The position numbers and the translations under genes are program-made. From Stenocarpella maydis (Eukaryota; Ascomycota; Sordariomycetes; Diaporthales; Diaporthaceae), in assembly GCA_002270565.1 (NCBI GenBank), contig CM008199.1:113398-177397 (forward strand): a stretch of DNA of 64,000 bases, written 5' to 3'. The notes beneath the pieces were generated by a model, which saw only the letters and a program-made list of their open reading frames with translations, searched no databases and had not been told where the DNA came from. This document shows positions 29,869 through 46,800 of the stretch, piece after piece; the first letter of the stretch is position 1, and every line of letters starts with the position of its first letter.

Positions 29869-29939
29869 TTCTCATTAGCTCAATGGTAGAGCCGGATACT
29901 TCTAATATCCTGATTTTAGTTCGAATCTGAAATGAGAAA
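29869..29939 (+). tRNA. trnR: tRNA-Arg(UCU)
   Basis: Acceptor TTCTCAT/ATGAGAA, D arm GCTC/GAGC, anticodon stem GGATA/TATCC with loop CTTCTAA, T arm TTTAG-TTCGAAT-CTGAA. All stems pair, so this is the best candidate for the functional gene. Two diverged copies with other anticodons lie at 30508 and 38799. Confidence 0.92.
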
Positions 29940-30208
29940 CGGTAATAGCTTTTTTTTTTTATTGGTGGTAGTCGTATAACTAAGATTATTAATACTACTA
30001 CTACTACGCATGCATTATTGTTATTTCGGTAATAGGTAGCTAATAGTAGGTAGCAGGAGGTTTGTTAGTTAGCTGCTTTATGATTAATATTTAGTTTACT
30101 TTAAATTTGTATAAACTAATAAGAGGTAATATTTTTTATTTTAAAATATTCTTTAATGTTTTTTGAGATATGTTAGGTGCTCATAGTTATCCCTATAAAA
30201 TAAGGATC

Positions 30209-30507: not shown

Positions 30508-30577
30508 TTCTTATTAGCTCAATGGTAGAGCCGGATATTCCGAATATCCTGATTTAGTTCGAGTCTGAAATGAGAAG
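30508..30577 (+). tRNA. trnR: trnR-like copy with anticodon CCG
   Basis: Same body as trnR(UCU): acceptor TTCTTAT/ATGAGAA, D arm GCTC/GAGC, T arm TTTAG-TTCGAGT-CTGAA. The anticodon loop is TTCCGAA, which would read CGG (Arg). The loop bases extend the stem into a perfect palindrome (GGATATTC C GAATATCC), so the loop may not present the anticodon. It may be a new Arg tRNA for CGN codons or a decaying duplicate. Confidence 0.65.
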
Positions 30578-37058: not shown

Positions 37059-38798
37059 ATGTTATTATCCAGTTTATTATTCATACCTCTTTTAGGTATA
37101 CTTTTAATTTGTGCCGGAAGATCTACCCTTCCTTTGGAAGGGTTGATCCCCCTCTTGGGTGGATCTCATGAAAGATCAATCCTGCGTATCCAGCCTTCGG
37201 GCACGGGGGATCAGGTTTTTGCTTTATCTAATCTTCAGATAGATGAGAATAAAGCTATAGATTTCGCCTATTCTAGTCGTGTCGGTGTAAGCTCCGATTT
37301 TAAGATATTAAAATTGATTGCTCTAGGTACTTCTATTCTTAATTTAATTATATCTCTAATTATTTATATATCATTTGATTTTAGCAGTAACCAATTTCAA
37401 TTTGTTTCTTCTTTGGGTGAGACTAGTTTATGTAGTTTAGATATTGGAGTTGATTCTTTATCTTTATATTTTGTTTTGTTAACTACTTTTATAGCCCCCA
37501 TTGCTTTGTTATCTAATTGAAATTCAATTAATAACAATGTTGTAACTTTCAATATTATAGTATTATTATTGGAATCTTTACTATTAGGATCATTTATGGC
37601 TTTAGATTTGCTCCTGTTCTATGTTTTCTTTGAAAGTATCTTGCCAGTTTTCTTTATTTTAATTGGTATTTTCGGTTCTGTTAATAGAGTTAGAGCTGGA
37701 TATTACTTATTTTTATATACATTAGGTAGTTCTCTCTTTATGCTGCTTTCAATCCTTACTATTGGTTCTGTGGCAGGTTCAACGTCTTTTGATGTAATAT
37801 TTAAAACCAATTTTGAATTTTCTTTGCAGATAGTCTTGTTTGTAGGAATCTTTGTGGCTATAGGGGTAAAAACTCCACTTTATGGTTTAAATTCTTGACT
37901 GTTAAAAGCTCACGTAGAATCGCCATTATCCGGTAGTATTCTTTTAGCTGCTATAGTTTTAAAATTAGCTTTATACGGAATATTTAGATTGCTTCTACCT
38001 ATTTTACCTAAAGCTTGCTTATTTTTCACTCCTTTCATATTTGTCTACGGTGTTATTACTATTGTTTATGCTGCTTTTAGTACCCTTCGTACTACCGATA
38101 TTAAAGAAATAATAGCTTATAGTAGTGTAGGACACGCGGCAGTGTATTTAATGGGTGCATTCAGTAACACGGTTCAAGGTATAGAAGGTTCTATTTTATT
38201 GGGGTTAGGTCATGGTTTTGTTAGTTCAGCACTATTTATTATAGTAGGTGGTATTCTTTATGATCGTACCGGTACTAGAAATATTGCTTTTTACAGAGGT
38301 CTTGCACAATTAATGCCATTGCTTTCAATCTTTTTCTTCATATTTACTTTAGCAAATTGCGGAACTCCTTTAACTTTAAATTTTGTAGGGGAATTCATGA
38401 GTTTATATGGATCATTTGAAAGACTTCCGGCTGTTGCTGCTTTAGCTTGTTCATCAATTATACTATCAGCTGCCTATTCAGTTTATCTATTCAATAGAGT
38501 AGTTTTCGGTGGTTCTTTTAGTAAATATTTTAAGGAAAATATTAGCGACTTAACTAACAGAGAATTCTTTTTACTATTGGTTTTAGCATTCTTCACTGTG
38601 TTATTTGGGCTTTATCCTAGCTTTATCTTAGATGGTTTACATTATAATGTATCTAGTTTAATCTATAGTACTTCTGAATATAGTTTATTAGCAACTATGC
38701 CAGTTCTTATACTTAAGGGGGCTCGTGGCTACAGTACTCAGGCACTTAATAAGGAGTCAGGGGAAATAGCCAATAGAAGTCCCCCCCCCCTCTTATAA
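37059..38798 (+). CDS. nad4: NADH dehydrogenase subunit 4 (579 aa), with inserted N-terminal block and unusual C-terminus
   Basis: Proton-pumping complex I subunit. Conserved: DSLSLYFVLLTTFIAPIALL, LLLFYVFFESILPVFF, WLLKAHVESPLSGSILLA, IIAYSSVGHAAVYLMGAF, LGLGHGFVSSALFIIVGG. No introns; TGA is Trp. Between LLICAG (residue about 20) and LKLIALGTSILNL (about 88) lies an extra block whose DNA (about 37118-37215) is GC-rich with GATC-bounded hairpins. After LDGLHYNVSSLIYS the protein ends ILKGARGYSTQALNKE..., which is not a usual ND4 tail. The TAA abuts the trnR-like copy at 38799. A second nad4 3' end lies at 30889-31065. Confidence 0.93.
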
Positions 38799-38869
38799 TT
38801 CTCATTAGCTCAATGGTAGAGCCGGATACTCCTAATAACCTGATTTCAGTTTGAGTCTGAAATGAGAAG
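38799..38869 (+). tRNA. trnR: trnR-like copy with anticodon CCU
   Basis: Body as in trnR(UCU): acceptor TTCTCAT/ATGAGAA, D arm GCTC/GAGC. The anticodon stem GGATA/TAACC has one A-A mismatch, the loop CTCCTAA gives CCU (AGG, Arg), and the T loop is TTTGAGT. It starts at the base after the nad4 stop. It may be a third Arg isoacceptor or a decaying duplicate. Confidence 0.6.
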
Positions 38870-39200
38870 CTTAACTATAAATTTAACCGAAGGCTACTTT
38901 ATAAAAATTCTAAAGGTGTCCTTCGTGAGTCCAGGAGAGTAGTCTAGCCTGCCTTCTCCTGACTGCCATACTTCTCCGTAGGCCAGGATAAGTCGTCAGT
39001 ATGGTGAAGCCGTCGTCAGGCAGGATGGCTCCTTCGGAGAAGCTAGGCCAGCACTACGTAGTCATAAAAGGGTTATAAGAAAGCGCTGTCATTTCGACGT
39101 AGTACTAAAAGCGCGCTTTTGTACATCTTATAACAGGACATGTAGATTATTAAATTATCATGATGATCACGAAAAATAAAGCAGTCCAATTTCGTACTAC
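38870..39200. other. hairpin-rich spacer at the edge of the nuclear-like segment
   Basis: CTGACTGCCATACTTCTCC-type spacer hairpins of the mitochondrial kind up to about 39110, then AT-rich sequence. The junction with the foreign-looking DNA lies somewhere at about 39110-39400. Confidence 0.5.
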
Positions 39201-39402
39201 CTACAGCTGAAAAAGAAGTTTCATGTTTTCTAAGTCCGTTGCAAAACCTTTAAGCAAGATAACTTGCATTGTTTCTTAATAATGATACAATTGTTTTTAT
39301 GATTTTTTTTCCAAAACTGGCTACACATGTTTCCTATTTAACCTAATCCTACTTAGAATATGAGAGTTAACAAGATAGAAAATAAAAAAGTTCAATCTTA
39401 TC

Positions 39403-39430
39403 CCAGGTTGACTATGCATAGTCAACCTGG
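39403..39430. repeat. perfect 28-bp palindrome downstream of the aminotransferase
   Basis: CCAGGTTGACTATG and its exact complement without spacer, 56 bp beyond the aminotransferase stop. It could act as a 3'-end or terminator-like hairpin for the minus-strand gene, or be a GC element. Confidence 0.7.
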
Positions 39431-39485
39431 TCACATTTTACCACCCAAAGTGGACTTCAAACAAGACTTTCCACACTTTTCGGTT

Positions 39486-40868
39486 TCAACCTTCCAACTC
39501 CAAAAATACTTGCTCAACCACTTCCGAGATCACCCGAATAATATGGTCCACATCATTCTTATCAACCCTATAGGGAGGAGCAAGAATGATATGATCCCCA
39601 CGAATTCCATCGGCAGTTCCAGTTCCTGGGTAGACAGTCATGTTGAATCGGGGTGAGAGAGCCAAGTCGAGGTTTTGCTGAGCAACCCCGAGTTTCGGAT
39701 CGAACGGTTCCTTGGTCGCTTTATCCTCCACGAACTCTAGACCCCATAAAAGACCTTTGCCTCGAATGTCTCCAACATTTGGATGATTGCCTAGCTTAGC
39801 TTTCAACCCTTCTCCCAAGTATTTACCTTGTCTGATGACATTCTCCATCAAGTTTTCTTCCCGGATGATTCGCTGAACCTCCAGAGCAGCTGCTGCCTGT
39901 ACCGGCATAGCCTGGTAAGTCAACCCATGAACGAATTGTCCACTTCCCTCCACCATCCTATTTAAAACCTTTGGTGATAGCATCATAGCACCAATGCTTT
40001 GATACCCGGCACCAAGTGCTTTAGCGATGGTTTGGGTGTCAGGTACAACATCCTCTGCTTGCCATGCATGCAAAGTGCCAGTTCGACCCATTCCGCACAT
40101 GACTTCGTCAAGTATGAAAAGAGCGCCGTGTTTGTGGCAAACGTCCCGCATAGTTCGAAGGTAGCCCGGGACATAGGGAACACAACCAAGGGCGGCGCCC
40201 ACAACCGGCTCCGCAATGAAGGCGATCACTGTATCCGTCCCTAGCTCTTGGAATTTGGCCTCAAGCTCGCCGGCTTTACGGGACACGAAGGCAGAATCCG
40301 ATTCACCCTCTAGTTGTTGACGATAAGGGTAACATGGAGAAATGTGGTGAACTTTATCCATAAGCAATGGAGTGTAGGGTGCTCTCCGAGCAGGAAATCC
40401 TGAGATGGATAAAGCCCCAAGTGTGTTGCCGTGGTATGAAGAGAAACGGGTGATGAAGTTGACACGAGGCGTTTCCTTGTCCTTTTCGTAGAAATATTGA
40501 CGAGAGAGCTTGATGGCAGCTTCCATCGCCTCGGAACCAGAGCCCGTTAAGTAGGCTCTGGCCATTTCCCCGTCGGTGCCATCAATAAGATCCCTGCACA
40601 ACTCCTCAACAACACGATTCTTCCAAAATGCCGAAGATAGGTAAGGTGTTCCGGTAGCCAACTGCTTAGAAATTGCCTGGTTGACTCTCTGGTCTCCGTA
40701 ACCGAGACAAGAAACAGCAGCACCTGAAGCTGCGTCAAACACCTCCTGCCCATCACTTGTGAAAAGGAAATTTCCTTTTCCACCCGTAATCTCGGGATAA
40801 GCCTTGTTGAGGTTGCGGAGAAAAGAGTACTCGGAAGTAGATTGAACGATCTTAGATGAAGAAGCCAT
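39486..40868 (-). CDS. class III (PLP-dependent) aminotransferase, nuclear-type, 460 aa
   Basis: Complete, intron-less frame. Family marks: LTGSGSEAMEAAIKLSRQY (108-125, cofactor phosphate loop), SYHGNTLGALS (144-154), AFIAEPVVGA (216-225), LFILDEVMCGMGRTG (250-264, with D254 for the pyridine N), TIAKALGAGY (280-289, with K283 as the PLP lysine), HGLTYQAMP (314-322). Class III enzymes move an amino group from an omega- or alpha-amine to a keto acid; the substrate cannot be read from sequence. All three Trp codons are TGG, whereas mitochondrial genes here use TGA, and the base composition is clearly richer in G+C. No mitochondrial homologue is known to me. Transfer from the fungal nucleus is the simplest origin. 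No N-terminal presequence is evident. Confidence 0.92.
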   Translation of the reverse strand: MASSSKIVQSTSEYSFLRNLNKAYPEITGGKGNFLFTSDGQEVFDAASGAAVSCLGYGDQRVNQAISKQLATGTPYLSSAFWKNRVVEELCRDLIDGTDGEMARAYLTGSGSEAMEAAIKLSRQYFYEKDKETPRVNFITRFSSYHGNTLGALSISGFPARRAPYTPLLMDKVHHISPCYPYRQQLEGESDSAFVSRKAGELEAKFQELGTDTVIAFIAEPVVGAALGCVPYVPGYLRTMRDVCHKHGALFILDEVMCGMGRTGTLHAWQAEDVVPDTQTIAKALGAGYQSIGAMMLSPKVLNRMVEGSGQFVHGLTYQAMPVQAAAALEVQRIIREENLMENVIRQGKYLGEGLKAKLGNHPNVGDIRGKGLLWGLEFVEDKATKEPFDPKLGVAQQNLDLALSPRFNMTVYPGTGTADGIRGDHIILAPPYRVDKNDVDHIIRVISEVVEQVFLELEG

Positions 40869-41400
40869 AGTGCTGGATGGTGTTGCTGAGGAATTTGATT
40901 ATGCTGATTGTGCGGATACAAAAGTTGTTTGTGGTAATATAGATTGATTCGACTTGATTTGGCCTTCGAGGTGATTGATGGGGATTGACTGTGAATAAAG
41001 ATAAATGAAATAAGATGATTCGACTCCTATATATAGTTTTCGGTAGCCAAAATCACGCCAGGAGAGCTCGTAATTAAAAGTCGAGATATCTGGCTTTAAC
41101 CGAGGTATCAAAGGTAATTTGAGGTTAGGGCTAGGCATCATTAGGCAGAAAGTTTCTATGACTCATAATTGAACTATATGACATCATGATTGCCATGTGA
41201 ACTAGTCAGAAGACTAATAATCGAACCATATGACATCATGACCGTCATGTGAACTGGTCATAATATTGGAAAATGAAACAAGAGATAGATAAATAATTGA
41301 TCTTATAGGTGGATGCTACGTAACAAAAGCTTGGCTAGTGTGATAAATTCAAGCCTGCCTGATGATATATTAGGTGATAGATATGGAAACAAGTGGCGGT
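40869..41400 (-). promoter_or_regulatory. probable nuclear-type 5' flank of the aminotransferase
   Basis: The 0.5 kb before the ATG has no mitochondrial gene and is of mixed composition. It contains a direct repeat with TATGACATCATGA and CATGTGAACT in each unit (41171-41222 and 41223-41262), resembling bZIP (TGACATCA) sites. Whether anything here works in mitochondria is doubtful. It suggests that a genomic segment moved, not a processed transcript. Confidence 0.4.
41171..41262. repeat. imperfect 52-bp direct repeat
   Basis: Two units, each with GAAC(T/C)ATATGACATCATGA, a short variable core, GTCATGTGAACT(A/G)GTCA-like sequence. Confidence 0.7.
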
Positions 41401-41408
41401 GTGACGAA

Positions 41409-41490
41409 TCGAAGTGGGGGGAGAGGCCTCCTTTTCAAGGAGGCCTCTCCATGCTGACTTCTCCGTAGGTCAACCAGGCGGCTGGGATTA
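41409..41490. repeat. mitochondrial-type GC hairpins inside the nuclear-like segment
   Basis: GAGAGGCCTCC/GGAGGCCTCTC around TTTTCAA is followed by CATGCTGACTTCTCCGTAGG, the motif of the tRNA-spacer hairpins elsewhere in the window. Its presence here suggests the foreign segment has lived in this mtDNA long enough to be invaded. Confidence 0.55.
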
Positions 41491-41616
41491 CCTTGCTGTT
41501 TTTCACCACTAAGTATATTTAAGTAAGATCCCCTTCGATTTCTTCAAGGAATATCCCTGATCATTACTCAAGTTTTCTGCTCTTTTCATATATCTCTTCA
41601 GACGCTAAATCATAAT

Positions 41617-42462
41617 TTGTTTACTTATCCCTGCTGGTGGTATACAATGGCTTCTCAAGTCCAATCCAGACTTCTTTCTACTTATTTGTCTTCCTCTTCC
41701 TCTTCCTCTTCCTCTCCCCTTCTCTCTGTCCGCGACATTAAGCAGGAGGAGGGGATTAGTGAGGAGGACTGGATCATAACGGAGGATGGTGGTCCTACTT
41801 CATTTCAGCCACCTAGACCTGAAGCTCTTCTGGCGGATGGTCTTCCTCGTTCATTTCAGTCACCTTGTCGTCGATTGCGTGAACCTCTTTCTAAAGGTGG
41901 GAATAATGTTTCTTACCTTAGGATTACTGGTTGGACTAATTCTTGTTCGTTTTTAGTATAAATCTCGATCAATAGAGATACCCACCGGTATTCTAACGAT
42001 TGCTCTTGCTTTTGGTGTGAAGACGAGCGCGATACAATTCCGGAGACTCTTAATACTCCTCGTCTGCCTGCAAATCCAAGCGTTGCTCACGAATTTTCGG
42101 TCTATTGCCCTTGCTTATCATGCGATGATAGGCGCGAAGAAACGTTGGGCAGCCCCTCCACTCGTCAGCAACCGAATCCCTTTTTGGACTTGGTTCCCTG
42201 TGATTCAATCCTTGTGATTGAATCACCCGAGCTTTTGTCTCCTCCTTTACCTCCAACCTCTTTTTCCCACGATAATCCTCAGGATCGTGAGGGCTTTTCC
42301 TACGACGATGTGCGCATTGAAAACCAACCCAGCCTGGCTTCTCTTGAGTCTGCTTTGCCTATACAACCCCGATCAGCGGTTCGGGTTGCACCTGCTATTT
42401 CCGGAATAAGGATAAATCCTTCAAGGCGAGCCAAGAAAAAAGCTCTGGTTATGATTCGGTAA
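41617..42462 (+). pseudogene. unidentified nuclear-like protein with Ser run and CxCxxC motifs, one in-frame stop
   Basis: A single frame broken only by TAA 41959-41961. The first part has ATG 41647, a Ser run encoded by a TCTTCC microsatellite (about 41690-41718), then acidic and Pro-rich stretches (GISEEDWIITEDGG). The second has two Cys motifs, DCSCFWCEDERD and YCPCLSCDDRRE, about 34 residues apart, then a Pro-rich region ending RAKKKALVMIR. Base and codon use resemble the aminotransferase, not mitochondrial genes. GTATAA at 41956, CTAAC at 41994 and an AG at 42021 could mark a small spliceosomal intron, though that would change frame. I do not recognise the family. Confidence 0.45.
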
Positions 42463-42647
42463 TGTTTAGGGAAAAAGAGTAAGTTCTACCTAGTAAATCG
42501 TTCCAAAGGCGGTAAACCCTCCCCGGCTTCTGATCCCCTAGGGGATCAGAATTAAGAATTTTACTAATATTTTTTGCTAGTTGGGCAAAAATCGAGAGCA
42601 CTCCGGGGGAAATCAGGCGCAGTTAGAGACAGAAAGATGTGAGAGTT

Positions 42648-42871
42648 GATTTCACCTTCTTCAGCTGGAGCCGGTTCGGGAATTAACTAAACAGGTTATC
42701 CAAAAGCGCCGTCATTTCCAGTCGCTTATGGATATCTTAGAGCAATATGCGGTAGAACATTTTAAGGAAAATGGGTATTTTTATTTGCCTTGTTCAAGGG
42801 TGGCTTCACCACAAATTGTTTCATTACGCCGAAGGAGAAACATCTGGTGGAGATATGGAGGAAAATCCTAA
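42648..42871 (+). other. coding-like fragment downstream of the Cys-motif frame
   Basis: A frame reads LQLEPVRELTKQVIQKRR, MDILEQYAVEHFKENGYFYL, PCSRVASPQIVSLRRRR and stops at 42869-42871. Its amphipathic, non-mitochondrial look suggests more of the foreign segment. No family recognised. Two GC hairpins (GATCCCCTAGGGGATC near 42532) precede it. Confidence 0.35.
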
Positions 42872-43054
42872 GATTACGGAGTTGGGCGTTGCTTTTAAAT
42901 TTATTAGTTATACATAGTTGCACAATTTAGTAAGGCAATATTTACTTAGAACTCGATTTTTGTGATTTTGCAGCAATATCGGCTACGCCGAAAAGGGTTA
43001 AATATATTTATTTAGTGTAAAGGCCTGGCTTCGCTATGTAGAGTAAAATATCTC

Positions 43055-43110
43055 CTGCGGAGACAAACTGGATCACTGGTAGCTAGCTGAAATGCTGTTT
43101 AATTTACAAT
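43055..43110 (+). pseudogene. relic of a group I intron core upstream of cob
   Basis: ACTGGATCACTGGTAGCTAG and CTGAAATGCTGTTTAAT parallel the core of cob intron 5 at 56104-56150 (ACTGGGTCACTAATGGGTGG, CTGAAATGCTGCTTAAT). No exon or ORF is near, so it looks like a leftover from duplication or rearrangement. Confidence 0.55.
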
Positions 43111-43756
43111 TTAAATATTTCTATATATTTTTGTTATATAAGATTTATAGCACGACCAAGTCGCACTATACTATATTCAATTATAGTTTACATTTATATG
43201 TACCGGTGTTTTCTCATATATGAAATATAAACAGCTAGTCGTATTGTAAAATTAAATTTATTAGTGTACACGATTTACTTGTTTTAAAGACGGAAGTTCT
43301 CATTTAAGATTTTCCGTTATTTTTATTATATAATAAGTAAATTAAAGATTTAGTTACAGTACAAATTTAATTATTTCTGATTCCTCCCCCCCCCCCCATT
43401 TTATTTTCCGAAGGCGGGATTTATATATAAGTTTGCGATTAATAAGAAGCTTAGTTTAGGATTATTGGTATATTATTATAAGTATCCTTCGTATTCCCCT
43501 TCCTGACTTCTCCTGCCTGGCCTACGGAGGAGAAGTCAGGATGGCCAGGGTACTTCGTTGGGATTAGGAATAGTGAGTAGCGCTTCCCTCGCTATATAGG
43601 CGGCTTACCCACGTAGTGGTATAAATAAATAAAAGGTAATATGTTCAAAAATCTTATTTAATTAAATATATTTTATTAAAGGAATAAGAGGTGTTTATAT
43701 ACAAAAAAAAATTCTTTAATTAAATGTATACTATACACGATAGAGTATTATAATTA

Positions 43757-43841: not shown

Positions 43842-46800
43842 ATGAGAATATTAAAAAGTCATCCTTTATTAAAATTAGCTAATGGATATCTTATAGATGC
43901 TTCACAACCAAGTAATTTAAGTTACATGTGAAATTTTGGTTCATTATTAGCTGTTTGTTTAGTTATACAAATAGTAACTGGAGTAACTCTAGCTATGCAC
44001 GTGCGCTGTGATAACAGGATAATGTCGGGTGATTCAATCACATTAGTTCCTTACTCTGCTAATAGATCATCTGAATTAAGTGAGGGGGAAAGCCCTAAGC
44101 CGAACTTAGCATTTCAGCTAGAAGCGGTGGTTTACGATAAACCGATAATCGTATTAACTGCTGCAAGATCTTTCTCCTATGATGAGACTCATACTAGTCG
44201 AACAATAATAACCACTGTCCTCAAGCTAGGGGAAGCACTCGTCGGTAACAGGTGCATTAATTCCTTAGAAGATTGTAGTGCATGATCTTCTATAGAAGGA
44301 GGAATTACAGATTTTTCAACAAGAATAAGCAAGGTTATAGGTTTTGCATCTAAGGGAGATGAACGAACATTATTCCTGAGCACAGGATTGCCTAAGGGAG
44401 GCAACTCCTATCGGCAACGGAACATTGGTAGTACCTGCCTCCTAAATAATCGGAGATACGCTTCAGGTAACTCTGACGGAAAGGGAAGCAATGTAGCTTT
44501 ACTATCATTCAGAAGGTCTTACGTCTCCGGAGGAGATACGGAATTAAAGTCCAACGTAGGCTCTAAACTGAATGAACTTGCTAACAGATCTAGATCAAAT
44601 CCTAAACAAATAATCGATCGTGAACTATTCAGGTTAACCACAAGTATAGACACTTTGATATACTCTTACGAAAATATAAAGAGCAAACCCGGTAACATGA
44701 CTCCAGGGATAACTCCTGAGACACTAGACGGAATCTCCATGGAAACATTCGTTAAACTATCTAGAAGTCTTAGAGACGAAAGCTTCTCCTTCACACCGAG
44801 TAGAAGAGTACAAATCCCTAAGGCTTCTGGTGGAACTCGCCCACTTTCTGTTGCTTCCCCTCTAGACAAAATAGTTCAGGAGGCTATGAGACTGGTATTG
44901 GAGGCTGTTTTTGAGCCTCTATTTAACGACAATTCACACGGATTTAGACCGAACCGGGGTTGCCACACTGCGCTTAAAAGAGTCAGTCAAAATTTCCAAC
45001 CTGTCCAATGGGTAATAGAAGGAGACCTGGCAAAATTCTTTGACACGATTTCACACCACAAATTAATGCATTTAATAGAAAATAAGATATCGGACAGAAG
45101 ATTTACCAAGTTAATCTGGAAAGCCCTAAAAGCAGGTTACTTTGAGTTTAAAACATACAAGAGTAATATCGTTGGTACTCCTCAAGGATCCATAGTCAGC
45201 CCCATCCTAGCGAATATCTTCTTACACCAATTAGACGAGTTTGTCGACTCTCTTAAAGAAAGTTTCGATAAAGGAAAGAAAGCTCCTAGAACTAAGGAGA
45301 GCAGATATTTCGAATACCATATACTAAAAGCCAGAAAAGAAGGCGACCTAAACAGGATGCAGAAACTAATTGCCGAAAGATCGCTAGTACCAGCGATTGA
45401 CTTTGGCTCGGAGGACTTTAAAAGGCTGGTATACGTTCGTTATGCGGATGATTGAATCATTGGTATTAGAGGAACTCGAAAGGAGGCCGTTGAAATTTAC
45501 AGCAAAGTTAAAGATTTCTGTACATCTATCGACCTAAACCTAAGCGAAACTAAAACTAAATTGACTAGCTTTAATTCTGAATCTGTACTTTTTCTCGGTA
45601 CAAAGATTTCAAGGTCTAATCACGTTAGATTTAGTAGATTGGGTTCGGTAAGGAGATTGAAACGTAATAAATTGGGTATTAGAATGGAAGCACCTATGGA
45701 CCGAATAAGGAAGAAACTATCTCGGACCAGCTTTATGTCACAAGGAAAATCGGCCCCTAAGTTCTTATGACTGCATAACGAACATGACCAAATCATACTC
45801 CTATACAACGCTGTGATGAGAGGGTTTCTTAACTACTACAGCTTCGTGCACAATTACCCTAGACTCGTGAGTTACCTAGAGTTCATTCTCAAACAGTCCT
45901 GTGCCAAGCTACTGGCAACGAAGTTCAGTCTCGGAACAATGGCGAAAGTATACAAAAAGTTTGGTCCTACCTTAGCTGGACCTAAAGGAACGGCTATCTT
46001 AAAACCAAGCTATAAGACTTCCCTGAAATTCCTAGTGAAAGGATCTCCGTTGATCGGAGCCCTTTTTCAAGAGAAATCAACGGCTACCCTAGATAATCTT
46101 GAATGTAGCATATGTGGATCAACTCATAGAGTTGAGATGCACCACATCCGGGCGATGAAAAATCTTAATCCAAAGATATCATATATGGATCGGATGATGG
46201 TGAGAATCAATCGTAAGAGAATCCCTTTATGTAGAGCGTGCCATATGCTAAAACACAGGAAGAAAGAGACAACCCTTGATCGCAGAGTAAACAATTGAAA
46301 GACCTAGAGGGATTAAATATCTCCCGAATCGTTCAATTGCCCGTCTACGATATCAGGGTTGGATTCTTTAATATACCGAGTCTCGGAGTATCGACGTACC
46401 GATACATTGTAATAGGTTTAAGAGTATCCTAATCCTCAAGCAAGGTATAATATAGATTATAACAAAATCGATTTGATCGCCCATCCTAAGCAAGATTAGT
46501 AAGGTGGAGAGCCGTATGAGGGGAAACTTTCACGTACGGTTCGGGAAAGGGGTATTATCGTCCCAATCGATTTAGACTAAACTCGGCGGAACATAAACCG
46601 TCCAACACGTCGTTAACCGAGTCTTCCGCCAATAAGTCGTCTCCGACGCCTGAGCTGAATATTAGAAACTAAAGAGAAAGGATTATAGTATTCTAGTTCA
46701 CTACAATCCTAGTGTTTTAGAAGCATTTAACTCAGTTGAGCATAAATCATAATGTGCTCATTAAATCAGGCTGTATGCTGGAAGATCTTAAGATTATCTT

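What the first reader, a model, noticed from the sequence alone, without database searches (positions are those of the whole stretch)
39110..42900. Intact nuclear-type aminotransferase gene inside mitochondrial DNA
A complete 460-codon class III aminotransferase with all PLP-enzyme motifs lies on the minus strand between nad4 and cob. It uses only TGG for Trp, has GC-rich codons and carries a nuclear-like 5' flank. Movement of DNA from nucleus to mitochondrion is rare in fungi, and an undamaged gene is rarer still. Mitochondrial-type GC hairpins inside the segment (41409-41490) argue that it resides in mtDNA and is not an assembly join.
Basis: partly seen in the sequence, partly recalled or inferred. 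Interest (0 to 1): 0.9.

Follow-up and report, generated by a model that had tools for sequence, protein, structure and literature searches.

The report
Roving aminotransferase gene in fungal mitochondria
A fungal mitochondrial genome carries one intact and one damaged copy of a metabolic enzyme gene, and both belong to a family that seems to move between the mitochondria of different fungi; it probably did not jump recently from this fungus's own nucleus.

Summary
An intact standard-code ORF of 460 aa (window 39486-40868, minus strand; class-III PLP aminotransferase) lies inside the 177 kb mitochondrial contig (C312) of a fungus, most likely a Diaporthales.

The host nuclear genome has no close parent: the nearest nuclear homologues are 55% identical or less. 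The best relative in the genome (64%) is a second, decaying copy on the same contig. GC3 (0.48) lies between five host nuclear ORFs (0.60-0.79) and nine long mitochondrial ORFs (0.34-0.43). The Trp-codon argument rests on three codons.

In trees both copies fall in a 76-row clade that holds the two rows labelled mitochondrial, a nad4L fusion, and some probably nuclear rows. Named Diaporthales rows do not group together and the two copies are not sisters. The copies share a 114-bp exact tract in otherwise 71%-identical genes (0 of 20,000 shuffles), which indicates gene conversion and so shared residence in mtDNA.

Aminotransferases in fungal mtDNA are already in print (Annulohypoxylon, Pestalotiopsis), so this is a new member of a known kind. 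New here: two lineages in one mtDNA, conversion between them, and a case for horizontal spread. Direction of movement, expression and substrate are unresolved.

The parts
39486..40868 (-). Copy 1: intact class-III aminotransferase ORF, 460 aa by the standard code (P0001)
39438..39485 (-). Extension of the frame if TGA is read as Trp (mitochondrial code): 476 aa, stop TAA
39674..39787 (-). 114-bp exact tract shared with copy 2 (C312:32695-32808, outside the window), read as a gene-conversion tract
39403..39430 (.). Perfect 28-bp palindrome 3' of the gene (hairpin, z -6.1)
40869..41400 (.). 5' flank of copy 1; GC falls from 0.41 (40800-40999) to 0.36-0.38; no nuclear match
41420..41450 (.). GC-rich hairpin in the segment; next to an exact copy of ACTTCTCCGTAGG at 41457-41469
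41647..42459 (+). Decayed ORF (in-frame TAA at 41959), divergent from copy 1; seven relatives found, best two 80% (a 6975-bp contig; Diaporthe sojae); no Pfam match for two sub-frames
42528..42551 (.). Perfect 24-bp palindrome
38799..38870 (+). tRNA-Arg (anticodon CCT), paralogue of the TCT and CCG tRNAs at 29869 and 30508
37059..38798 (+). Upstream mitochondrial ORF with Proton_antipo_M (nad4 by recall)
43842..46307 (+). First exon of cob continuing into a group II intron reverse transcriptase/maturase ORF

Best explanation
Copy 1 is a mitochondrially resident member of a family of omega-type class-III aminotransferases that moves between fungal mitochondrial genomes and sometimes sits in nuclear ones. 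Shown: the gene is intact; it sits in the mtDNA contig; a second, separately derived and decaying copy lies on the same contig; the two share an exact tract; both fall in one large clade; named Diaporthales members are not one group. Inferred: the gene came in from another fungus's mitochondria (after hyphal fusion, or on a plasmid or intron) and recombined into the nad4-cob spacer. Copy 1 then overwrote part of copy 2 by gene conversion, or the reverse. If expressed, the protein is made by mitochondrial ribosomes (TGA read through, 476 aa) and works in the matrix as a PLP transaminase that moves amino groups between an omega-amino compound and a keto acid. Substrate and expression are unknown.
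For: Own genome: besides itself, copy 1 matches copy 2 (64%) best; the next are nuclear C45 (up to 55%, in exons) and C218 (44%). DNA searches of 38900-41900 and 41300-43700 found no nuclear relative of the gene.
Clade: in the 113-row tree, 76 rows form one starred clade (SH-aLRT 99) with both copies, the two Apiospora rows labelled '(mitochondrion)', Juglanconis and a row fused in frame to nad4L. In a careful 55-row tree the branch parting 22 outside rows from the clade's 32 rows has support 100/99.
Tests: holding copy 1 with five named Diaporthales rows costs 137 log units (AU p 3.4e-43); with Cytospora and Juglanconis only, leaving out the Diaporthe rows, 84 (p 0.0002); with Juglanconis alone, 75 (p 0.001). 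Copies 1 and 2 as sisters cost 253 (p 6.4e-8). Host placed in Diaporthales by a nuclear acetylornithine aminotransferase tree (99/95).
Conversion: 114-bp exact run against 71% overall, 0 of 20,000 shuffles (largest 52); dS 0.04 in the tract against 0.86 outside. By protein identity to copy 1, copy 2 ranks 1st of 75 in the tract and 64th of 75 outside it.
Constraint: seven motif residues kept in 75-76 of 76 rows; dN/dS between the copies 0.34 outside the tract. The clade leans to AT-rich-codon residues (median FYMINK/GARP 1.05 in 76 rows against 0.82 in 34).
Against: No reads, transcripts or protein data. Most of the 76 rows are proteins without genomic context, so their compartment is unknown. 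Some are probably nuclear (Diaporthe batatas on a 2.9 Mb contig, Diaporthe sp. on 650 kb), so the five-row Diaporthales test mixes compartments. The DNA of the relatives could not be read. The root is unresolved (AU p 0.516 for the mt-type rows as one clade against bacterial outgroups). Hidden paralogy with loss could mimic horizontal transfer. A union of Apiospora and Hypoxylon rows was not rejected (p 0.274), so vertical descent there remains possible. Copy 1 is on the strand opposite to all 26 tRNA genes found and to the rRNA and intron matches, which speaks against ordinary expression. Both copies have TGG at all 7 Trp codons and end in TGA, as a standard-code gene would, and copy 1's own FYMINK/GARP ratio (0.83) is like that of the rows outside the clade. 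The tract is conserved in protein across the family (next best 34 of 39 residues), so the protein rank alone is weak. The databases list predicted ORFs, so conserved motifs are partly ascertainment.
Confidence: 0.6

Rival explanations
1. Recent nucleus-to-mitochondrion transfer in this fungus or its near ancestors: a nuclear gene inserted whole and is still fresh.
For: All 3 internal Trp codons of copy 1 are TGG and it ends in TGA; its FYMINK/GARP ratio (0.83) is near the median of the 34 rows outside the clade (0.82) and below that of the 76 clade rows (1.05); some clade members are probably nuclear, among them Diaporthe, likely of the same order as the host.
Against: No close nuclear parent in the host assembly. 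GC3 0.475 against 0.60-0.79 in five host nuclear ORFs. Best listed relative 80%, so no fresh parent is known. Three Trp codons carry little weight (chance about 0.03 at the TGG share of nine long mitochondrial ORFs).
Confidence: 0.2
2. Assembly chimera: nuclear DNA joined into the mitochondrial contig.
For: Chimeric joins may occur in this assembly: the first ~1.25 kb of C312 has GC 0.51-0.70, looks nuclear, and has no other copy in the assembly beyond a 75-bp, 76% match. GC is raised over most of 39.4-42.8 kb. No reads could be checked.
Against: Hairpin elements of a kind found elsewhere in the window lie inside and beside the segment; copy 1 shares an exact tract with a second copy elsewhere on the contig; its composition is unlike five host nuclear ORFs; the neighbouring ORF has only seven relatives found, one of them in Diaporthe sojae.
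Confidence: 0.06
3. Inert passenger: the gene does reside in mtDNA and spreads by recombination, but it is neither expressed nor selected; it looks intact only because it arrived recently. (Compatible with the mobile part of the best explanation, not with its enzyme part.)
For: Opposite strand to the other genes found; no TGA Trp codon gained; copy 2 and the neighbouring ORF are already decayed.
Against: dN/dS 0.34 between the copies, and motif residues kept in the 11 AT-biased members looked at. Both are open to ascertainment bias, and constraint on the copies could predate arrival.
Confidence: 0.35
4. The whole contig is a nuclear copy of mtDNA.
For: GC-rich left end of C312.
Against: The one mtDNA region tested (nad4) occurs on no other contig; 177 kb with many long frames open under table 4 and 26 tRNA genes.
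Confidence: 0.02

Closest known systems
Aminotransferase class-III-like gene in the mtDNA of Annulohypoxylon stygium (PMC6140425; passages read)
   Same: Class-III aminotransferase free-standing in mtDNA, between two mitochondrial genes (atp9 and cox2); an aminotransferase-related fragment elsewhere in the same mtDNA
   Different: That gene is described with two short introns and as vertically inherited in Xylariales; here an intronless frame, a full-length decaying second copy of a different lineage, and a conversion tract. The sequences were not compared directly.
Aminotransferase of Pestalotiopsis fici mtDNA (PMC11277600; passage read) and intron-encoded aminotransferases and N-acetyltransferases (PMC7902536 and PMC8393795; one passage each read; a paper they cite was sought under a recalled DOI and is not held)
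   Same: Metabolic enzyme ORFs in fungal mtDNA, intergenic or intronic
   Different: No tree of the aminotransferase and no second lineage was seen in the passages read
N-acetyltransferase of Phialocephala subalpina mtDNA (PMC3434094; passages read)
   Same: Extra transferase gene in mtDNA whose relatives at the time were nuclear
   Different: Another protein family
PRK07483 / NF005685 aminotransferases and solved omega-transaminases (3i4j; 9qgh)
   Same: Passes the NF005685 cut-off; fold match TM about 0.9; 3i4j is the best by sequence
   Different: 28-33% identity to the 50 solved chains listed by fold; substrate unknown

Membership tests
Class-III PLP aminotransferase (PF00202) | Domain match over full length | tested here: met
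   Residues 27-450, 252 bits against a cut-off of 30.5
Class-III PLP aminotransferase (PF00202) | PLP lysine and pyridine-binding aspartate (roles recalled) | tested here: met
   K283 and D254 present; D in 76 of 76, K in 75 of 76 clade rows with one gap
Class-III PLP aminotransferase (PF00202) | Aminotransferase fold | tested here: met
   pLDDT 92.5; TM about 0.9 to omega-transaminases
Class-III PLP aminotransferase (PF00202) | Transaminase activity | not testable with these tools
   needs expressed protein
BioA (the JGI name on relatives) | TIGR00508 curated cut-off | tested here: not met
   257.3 bits against 405
Mitochondrially encoded fungal aminotransferases | Lies among mitochondrial genes on the mtDNA contig | tested here: met
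Mitochondrially encoded fungal aminotransferases | Groups with known mitochondrial members | tested here: met
   76-row clade with both Apiospora rows labelled (mitochondrion) and the nad4L fusion; split 100/99; the clade also holds probably nuclear rows
Mitochondrially encoded fungal aminotransferases | Groups with the published A. stygium and P. fici genes | not tested
   those sequences were not identified among the 120 listed hits
Recent nuclear-to-mitochondrial transfer | Close parent in the host nuclear genome | tested here: not met
   best nuclear homologue 55% over exons; no nuclear DNA match to the gene
Recent nuclear-to-mitochondrial transfer | Host-nuclear composition | tested here: not met
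   GC3 0.475 against 0.60-0.79 in 5 nuclear ORFs
Gene conversion between resident copies | Exact tract far longer than chance at the overall identity | tested here: met
   114 bp, 0 of 20,000 shuffles; dS 0.04 in the tract, 0.86 outside

The most novel reading that the evidence does not exclude
This aminotransferase is a mobile cargo gene of fungal mitochondria. It escaped once into the mitochondrial gene pool and now spreads horizontally between mitochondria of different orders and classes of Pezizomycotina, is homogenised by gene conversion where two lineages meet, and has crossed between mitochondrion and nucleus at least two or three times, so that the Leotiomycete nuclear genes could even be mitochondrial returnees.
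Probability: 0.3. Interest if true: 0.75.

Novelty: new member of a known kind. Interest (0 to 1): 0.5.

Why it matters
Metabolic genes in mtDNA are mostly reported genome by genome. Here one mtDNA, most likely of a Diaporthales, holds two separately derived lineages of the same enzyme that have recombined with each other, and the tree rejects simple vertical descent within that order, whereas the Annulohypoxylon paper preferred vertical descent for its genes. If confirmed with genes of known location, fungal mitochondria would share a gene pool of metabolic enzymes as well as introns, and the movement of genes between nucleus and mitochondrion could be two-way in fungi.

Tried and rejected
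Root: the quick tree put the 76-row clade inside a grade of Leotiomycete genes, which suggested nucleus-to-mitochondrion, and my note says so. A careful tree with 12 bacterial outgroups put the Leotiomycete genes inside the mt-type rows. The AU test could not decide (p 0.516, and the held tree was 0.53 log units better than the free one, so the free search was not exhaustive). No direction is claimed, and that note is superseded.

Looking for mtDNA relatives with DNA context: viral contigs gave one locus on a contig that looks bacterial (L038, 47%) and then none; the 80 loci kept from genome contigs are bacterial, 12 of them used as outgroups.

Pfam gave nothing for two sub-frames of the neighbouring ORF. 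A 12-mer sharing count had faulty controls (the control regions counted themselves) and is not used. The script counted 71 clade rows instead of 76; the composition comparison was redone with 76 against 34 rows.

Rows dropped: of 120 listed homologues (of 7,999 scored), 12 shorter than 400 aa were left out of the 113-row tree (one 346-aa row was kept); subsets of 55 and 57 rows were chosen by hand for the careful trees. Alignment A1 holds 75 of the 76 clade rows (without copy 2). Nine long ORFs used as a Trp and GC3 yardstick were taken to be group II intron ORFs by size and were not checked by profile. The five nuclear ORFs are the longest open frames at five loci found with the aminotransferase profile. 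Compartment labels (minimum 3 changes, 2 without P0058) were set by me from source labels, contig length and recall.
Full report
What is there. The window is C312:113398-177397 of an unnamed 53.5 Mb assembly; C312 is 177,397 bp. It carries mitochondrial genes and 26 tRNA genes, and the window holds LSU rRNA pieces and group I and II intron matches. The one mtDNA region tested (nad4) occurs on no other contig. On the minus strand at 39486-40868 lies an open frame of 460 codons. It matches class-III aminotransferases over its full length, keeps the motif residues and is predicted to fold as an omega-transaminase. It is not BioA by the curated model. By the mitochondrial code its TGA stop reads as Trp and the product is 476 aa.

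Host. A nuclear acetylornithine aminotransferase from the same assembly groups with Cytospora and Cryphonectria (99/95), and nearer Cryphonectria (95/93), so the host is most likely a Diaporthales (the order of Cytospora, of Cryphonectria from recall). This is one gene only.

No parent in the nucleus. The best match in the assembly is a second copy on the same contig, C312:31638-32990, 64% identical, with one TAG stop inside the match and no ATG in frame ahead of the domain. Nuclear homologues are up to 55% (C45, in exons), 44% (C218) or less. A DNA search of 3 kb around the gene found only the two mitochondrial copies and a self-palindrome. Copy 1 has GC3 0.475 and copy 2 0.37; five host nuclear ORFs have 0.60-0.79, nine long mitochondrial ORFs 0.34-0.43, five other mitochondrial ORFs 0.16-0.25. 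Copy 1 has 3 Trp codons and copy 2 has 4, all TGG; the nine ORFs have 34 TGG and 72 TGA. Seven of seven TGG has a chance of about 0.0003 at that share, copy 1 alone 0.03, and the sites are homologous, so not independent. This hints at a standard-code past but does not date it.

Relatives. 7,999 homologues were scored and the best 120 listed. A 113-row tree has a starred clade of 76 rows with both copies. It includes the two Apiospora rows labelled (mitochondrion), Juglanconis oblonga (whose mitogenome is among those compared in PMC11889515, passages read; that this protein comes from it is inferred), a row fused in frame to nad4L, Lachnellula, Cytospora, Hypoxylon, Annulohypoxylon, a lichen MAG, and Diaporthe rows on contigs of up to 2.9 Mb that are probably nuclear. 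The named rows outside the clade are Leotiomycete genes (class by recall), on contigs from 41 kb to 8 Mb. Of the 34 rows outside, 33 have 25 or more residues ahead of the shared core, against 21 of 76 in the clade. The clade's core is shifted towards AT-rich-codon residues (FYMINK/GARP median 1.05 in 76 rows against 0.82 in 34). The 55-row careful tree supports the split at 100/99. The root is unresolved.

Not vertical. Copy 1 with the five named Diaporthales rows (Cytospora, three Diaporthe, Juglanconis) as one clade is 137 log units worse, AU p 3.4e-43. Because some Diaporthe rows are probably nuclear, I also held copy 1 with Cytospora and Juglanconis only (84 worse, p 0.0002) and with Juglanconis alone (75 worse, p 0.001). 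Including copy 2 in the seven-row set it is 503 worse, and the two copies as sisters are 253 worse, p 6.4e-8. As a counter-result, a union of Apiospora and Hypoxylon rows was not rejected (p 0.274), so descent within that group remains possible. Copy 1's sister is P0002 (80%; 99/90) and copy 2's is P0071 (92%; 100/99), both from unnamed sources.

Gene conversion. Copies 1 and 2 are 71% identical over 460 codons but share one exact 114-bp run, window 39674-39787 and C312:32695-32808. None of 20,000 codon shuffles reached it (largest 52). Silent divergence is 0.04 in the tract and 0.86 outside. In protein, copy 2 is the closest of 75 clade rows to copy 1 in that stretch (37 of 39) and ranks 64th elsewhere; the stretch is conserved, the next best having 34 of 39, so the DNA is the stronger evidence. 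Four relatives of copy 2 differ from it there. The direction is uncertain. Recombination between the copies is best explained by shared residence in mtDNA. A consensus artefact of assembly cannot be excluded without reads.

Neighbourhood. A plus-strand frame at 41647-42459, broken by a TAA at 41959, has seven relatives found, the best two 80% identical (a 6975-bp contig; Diaporthe sojae), one on a 22.7 kb contig. Thus two ORFs with relatives in Diaporthe lie side by side. Hairpins and copies of a 13-base element lie in and around them.

Literature. Ten searches of the open-access library and passages of seven papers; an eighth held none of the terms. An aminotransferase in mtDNA is reported for Annulohypoxylon stygium in all six isolates (PMC6140425) and for Pestalotiopsis fici (PMC11277600); PMC7902536 and PMC8393795 mention intron-encoded ones. 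PMC6140425 prefers vertical descent. I found no report of two lineages in one mtDNA or of conversion between them in these searches; most subscription papers were not searchable.

Verdict. The reading as a recent nuclear insertion is not supported; a mobile mitochondrial lineage explains more. Function is inferred only.

Noticed in passing
window 29869-29940, 30508-30577, 38799-38870: Three tRNA-Arg paralogues with anticodons TCT, CCG and CCT; the CCT copy is 93% and 90% identical to the other two: duplicated tRNAs whose anticodons have changed.
   Followed up: partly
C312:1-1250 (outside the window): The first ~1.25 kb of the mitochondrial contig has GC 0.51-0.70 and looks nuclear; no other copy in the assembly beyond a 75-bp, 76% match on C282. 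Chimeric contig end or another insertion.
   Followed up: partly
window 43523-43676: 154 bp of mitochondrial spacer, 99% identical to contig C284:112695-112848: perhaps a recent mitochondrial fragment in the nucleus.
   Followed up: no
window 41647-42459: Decayed ORF of a small family with repeated Cys-rich motifs (H-x-[YF]-S-x2-C-x-C-x2-C or close), known here from seven sequences, one of them Diaporthe sojae.
   Followed up: partly
P0053, P0110, P0113 (metagenome proteins): Aminotransferases fused behind a long hydrophobic N-terminal part that looks membrane-spanning by eye, in AT-biased sequences.
   Followed up: no
P0022, P0094, P0042, P0065: N-terminal extensions rich in Arg, Ser and Thr that resemble mitochondrial import signals by eye, within the mt-type clade.
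   Followed up: no
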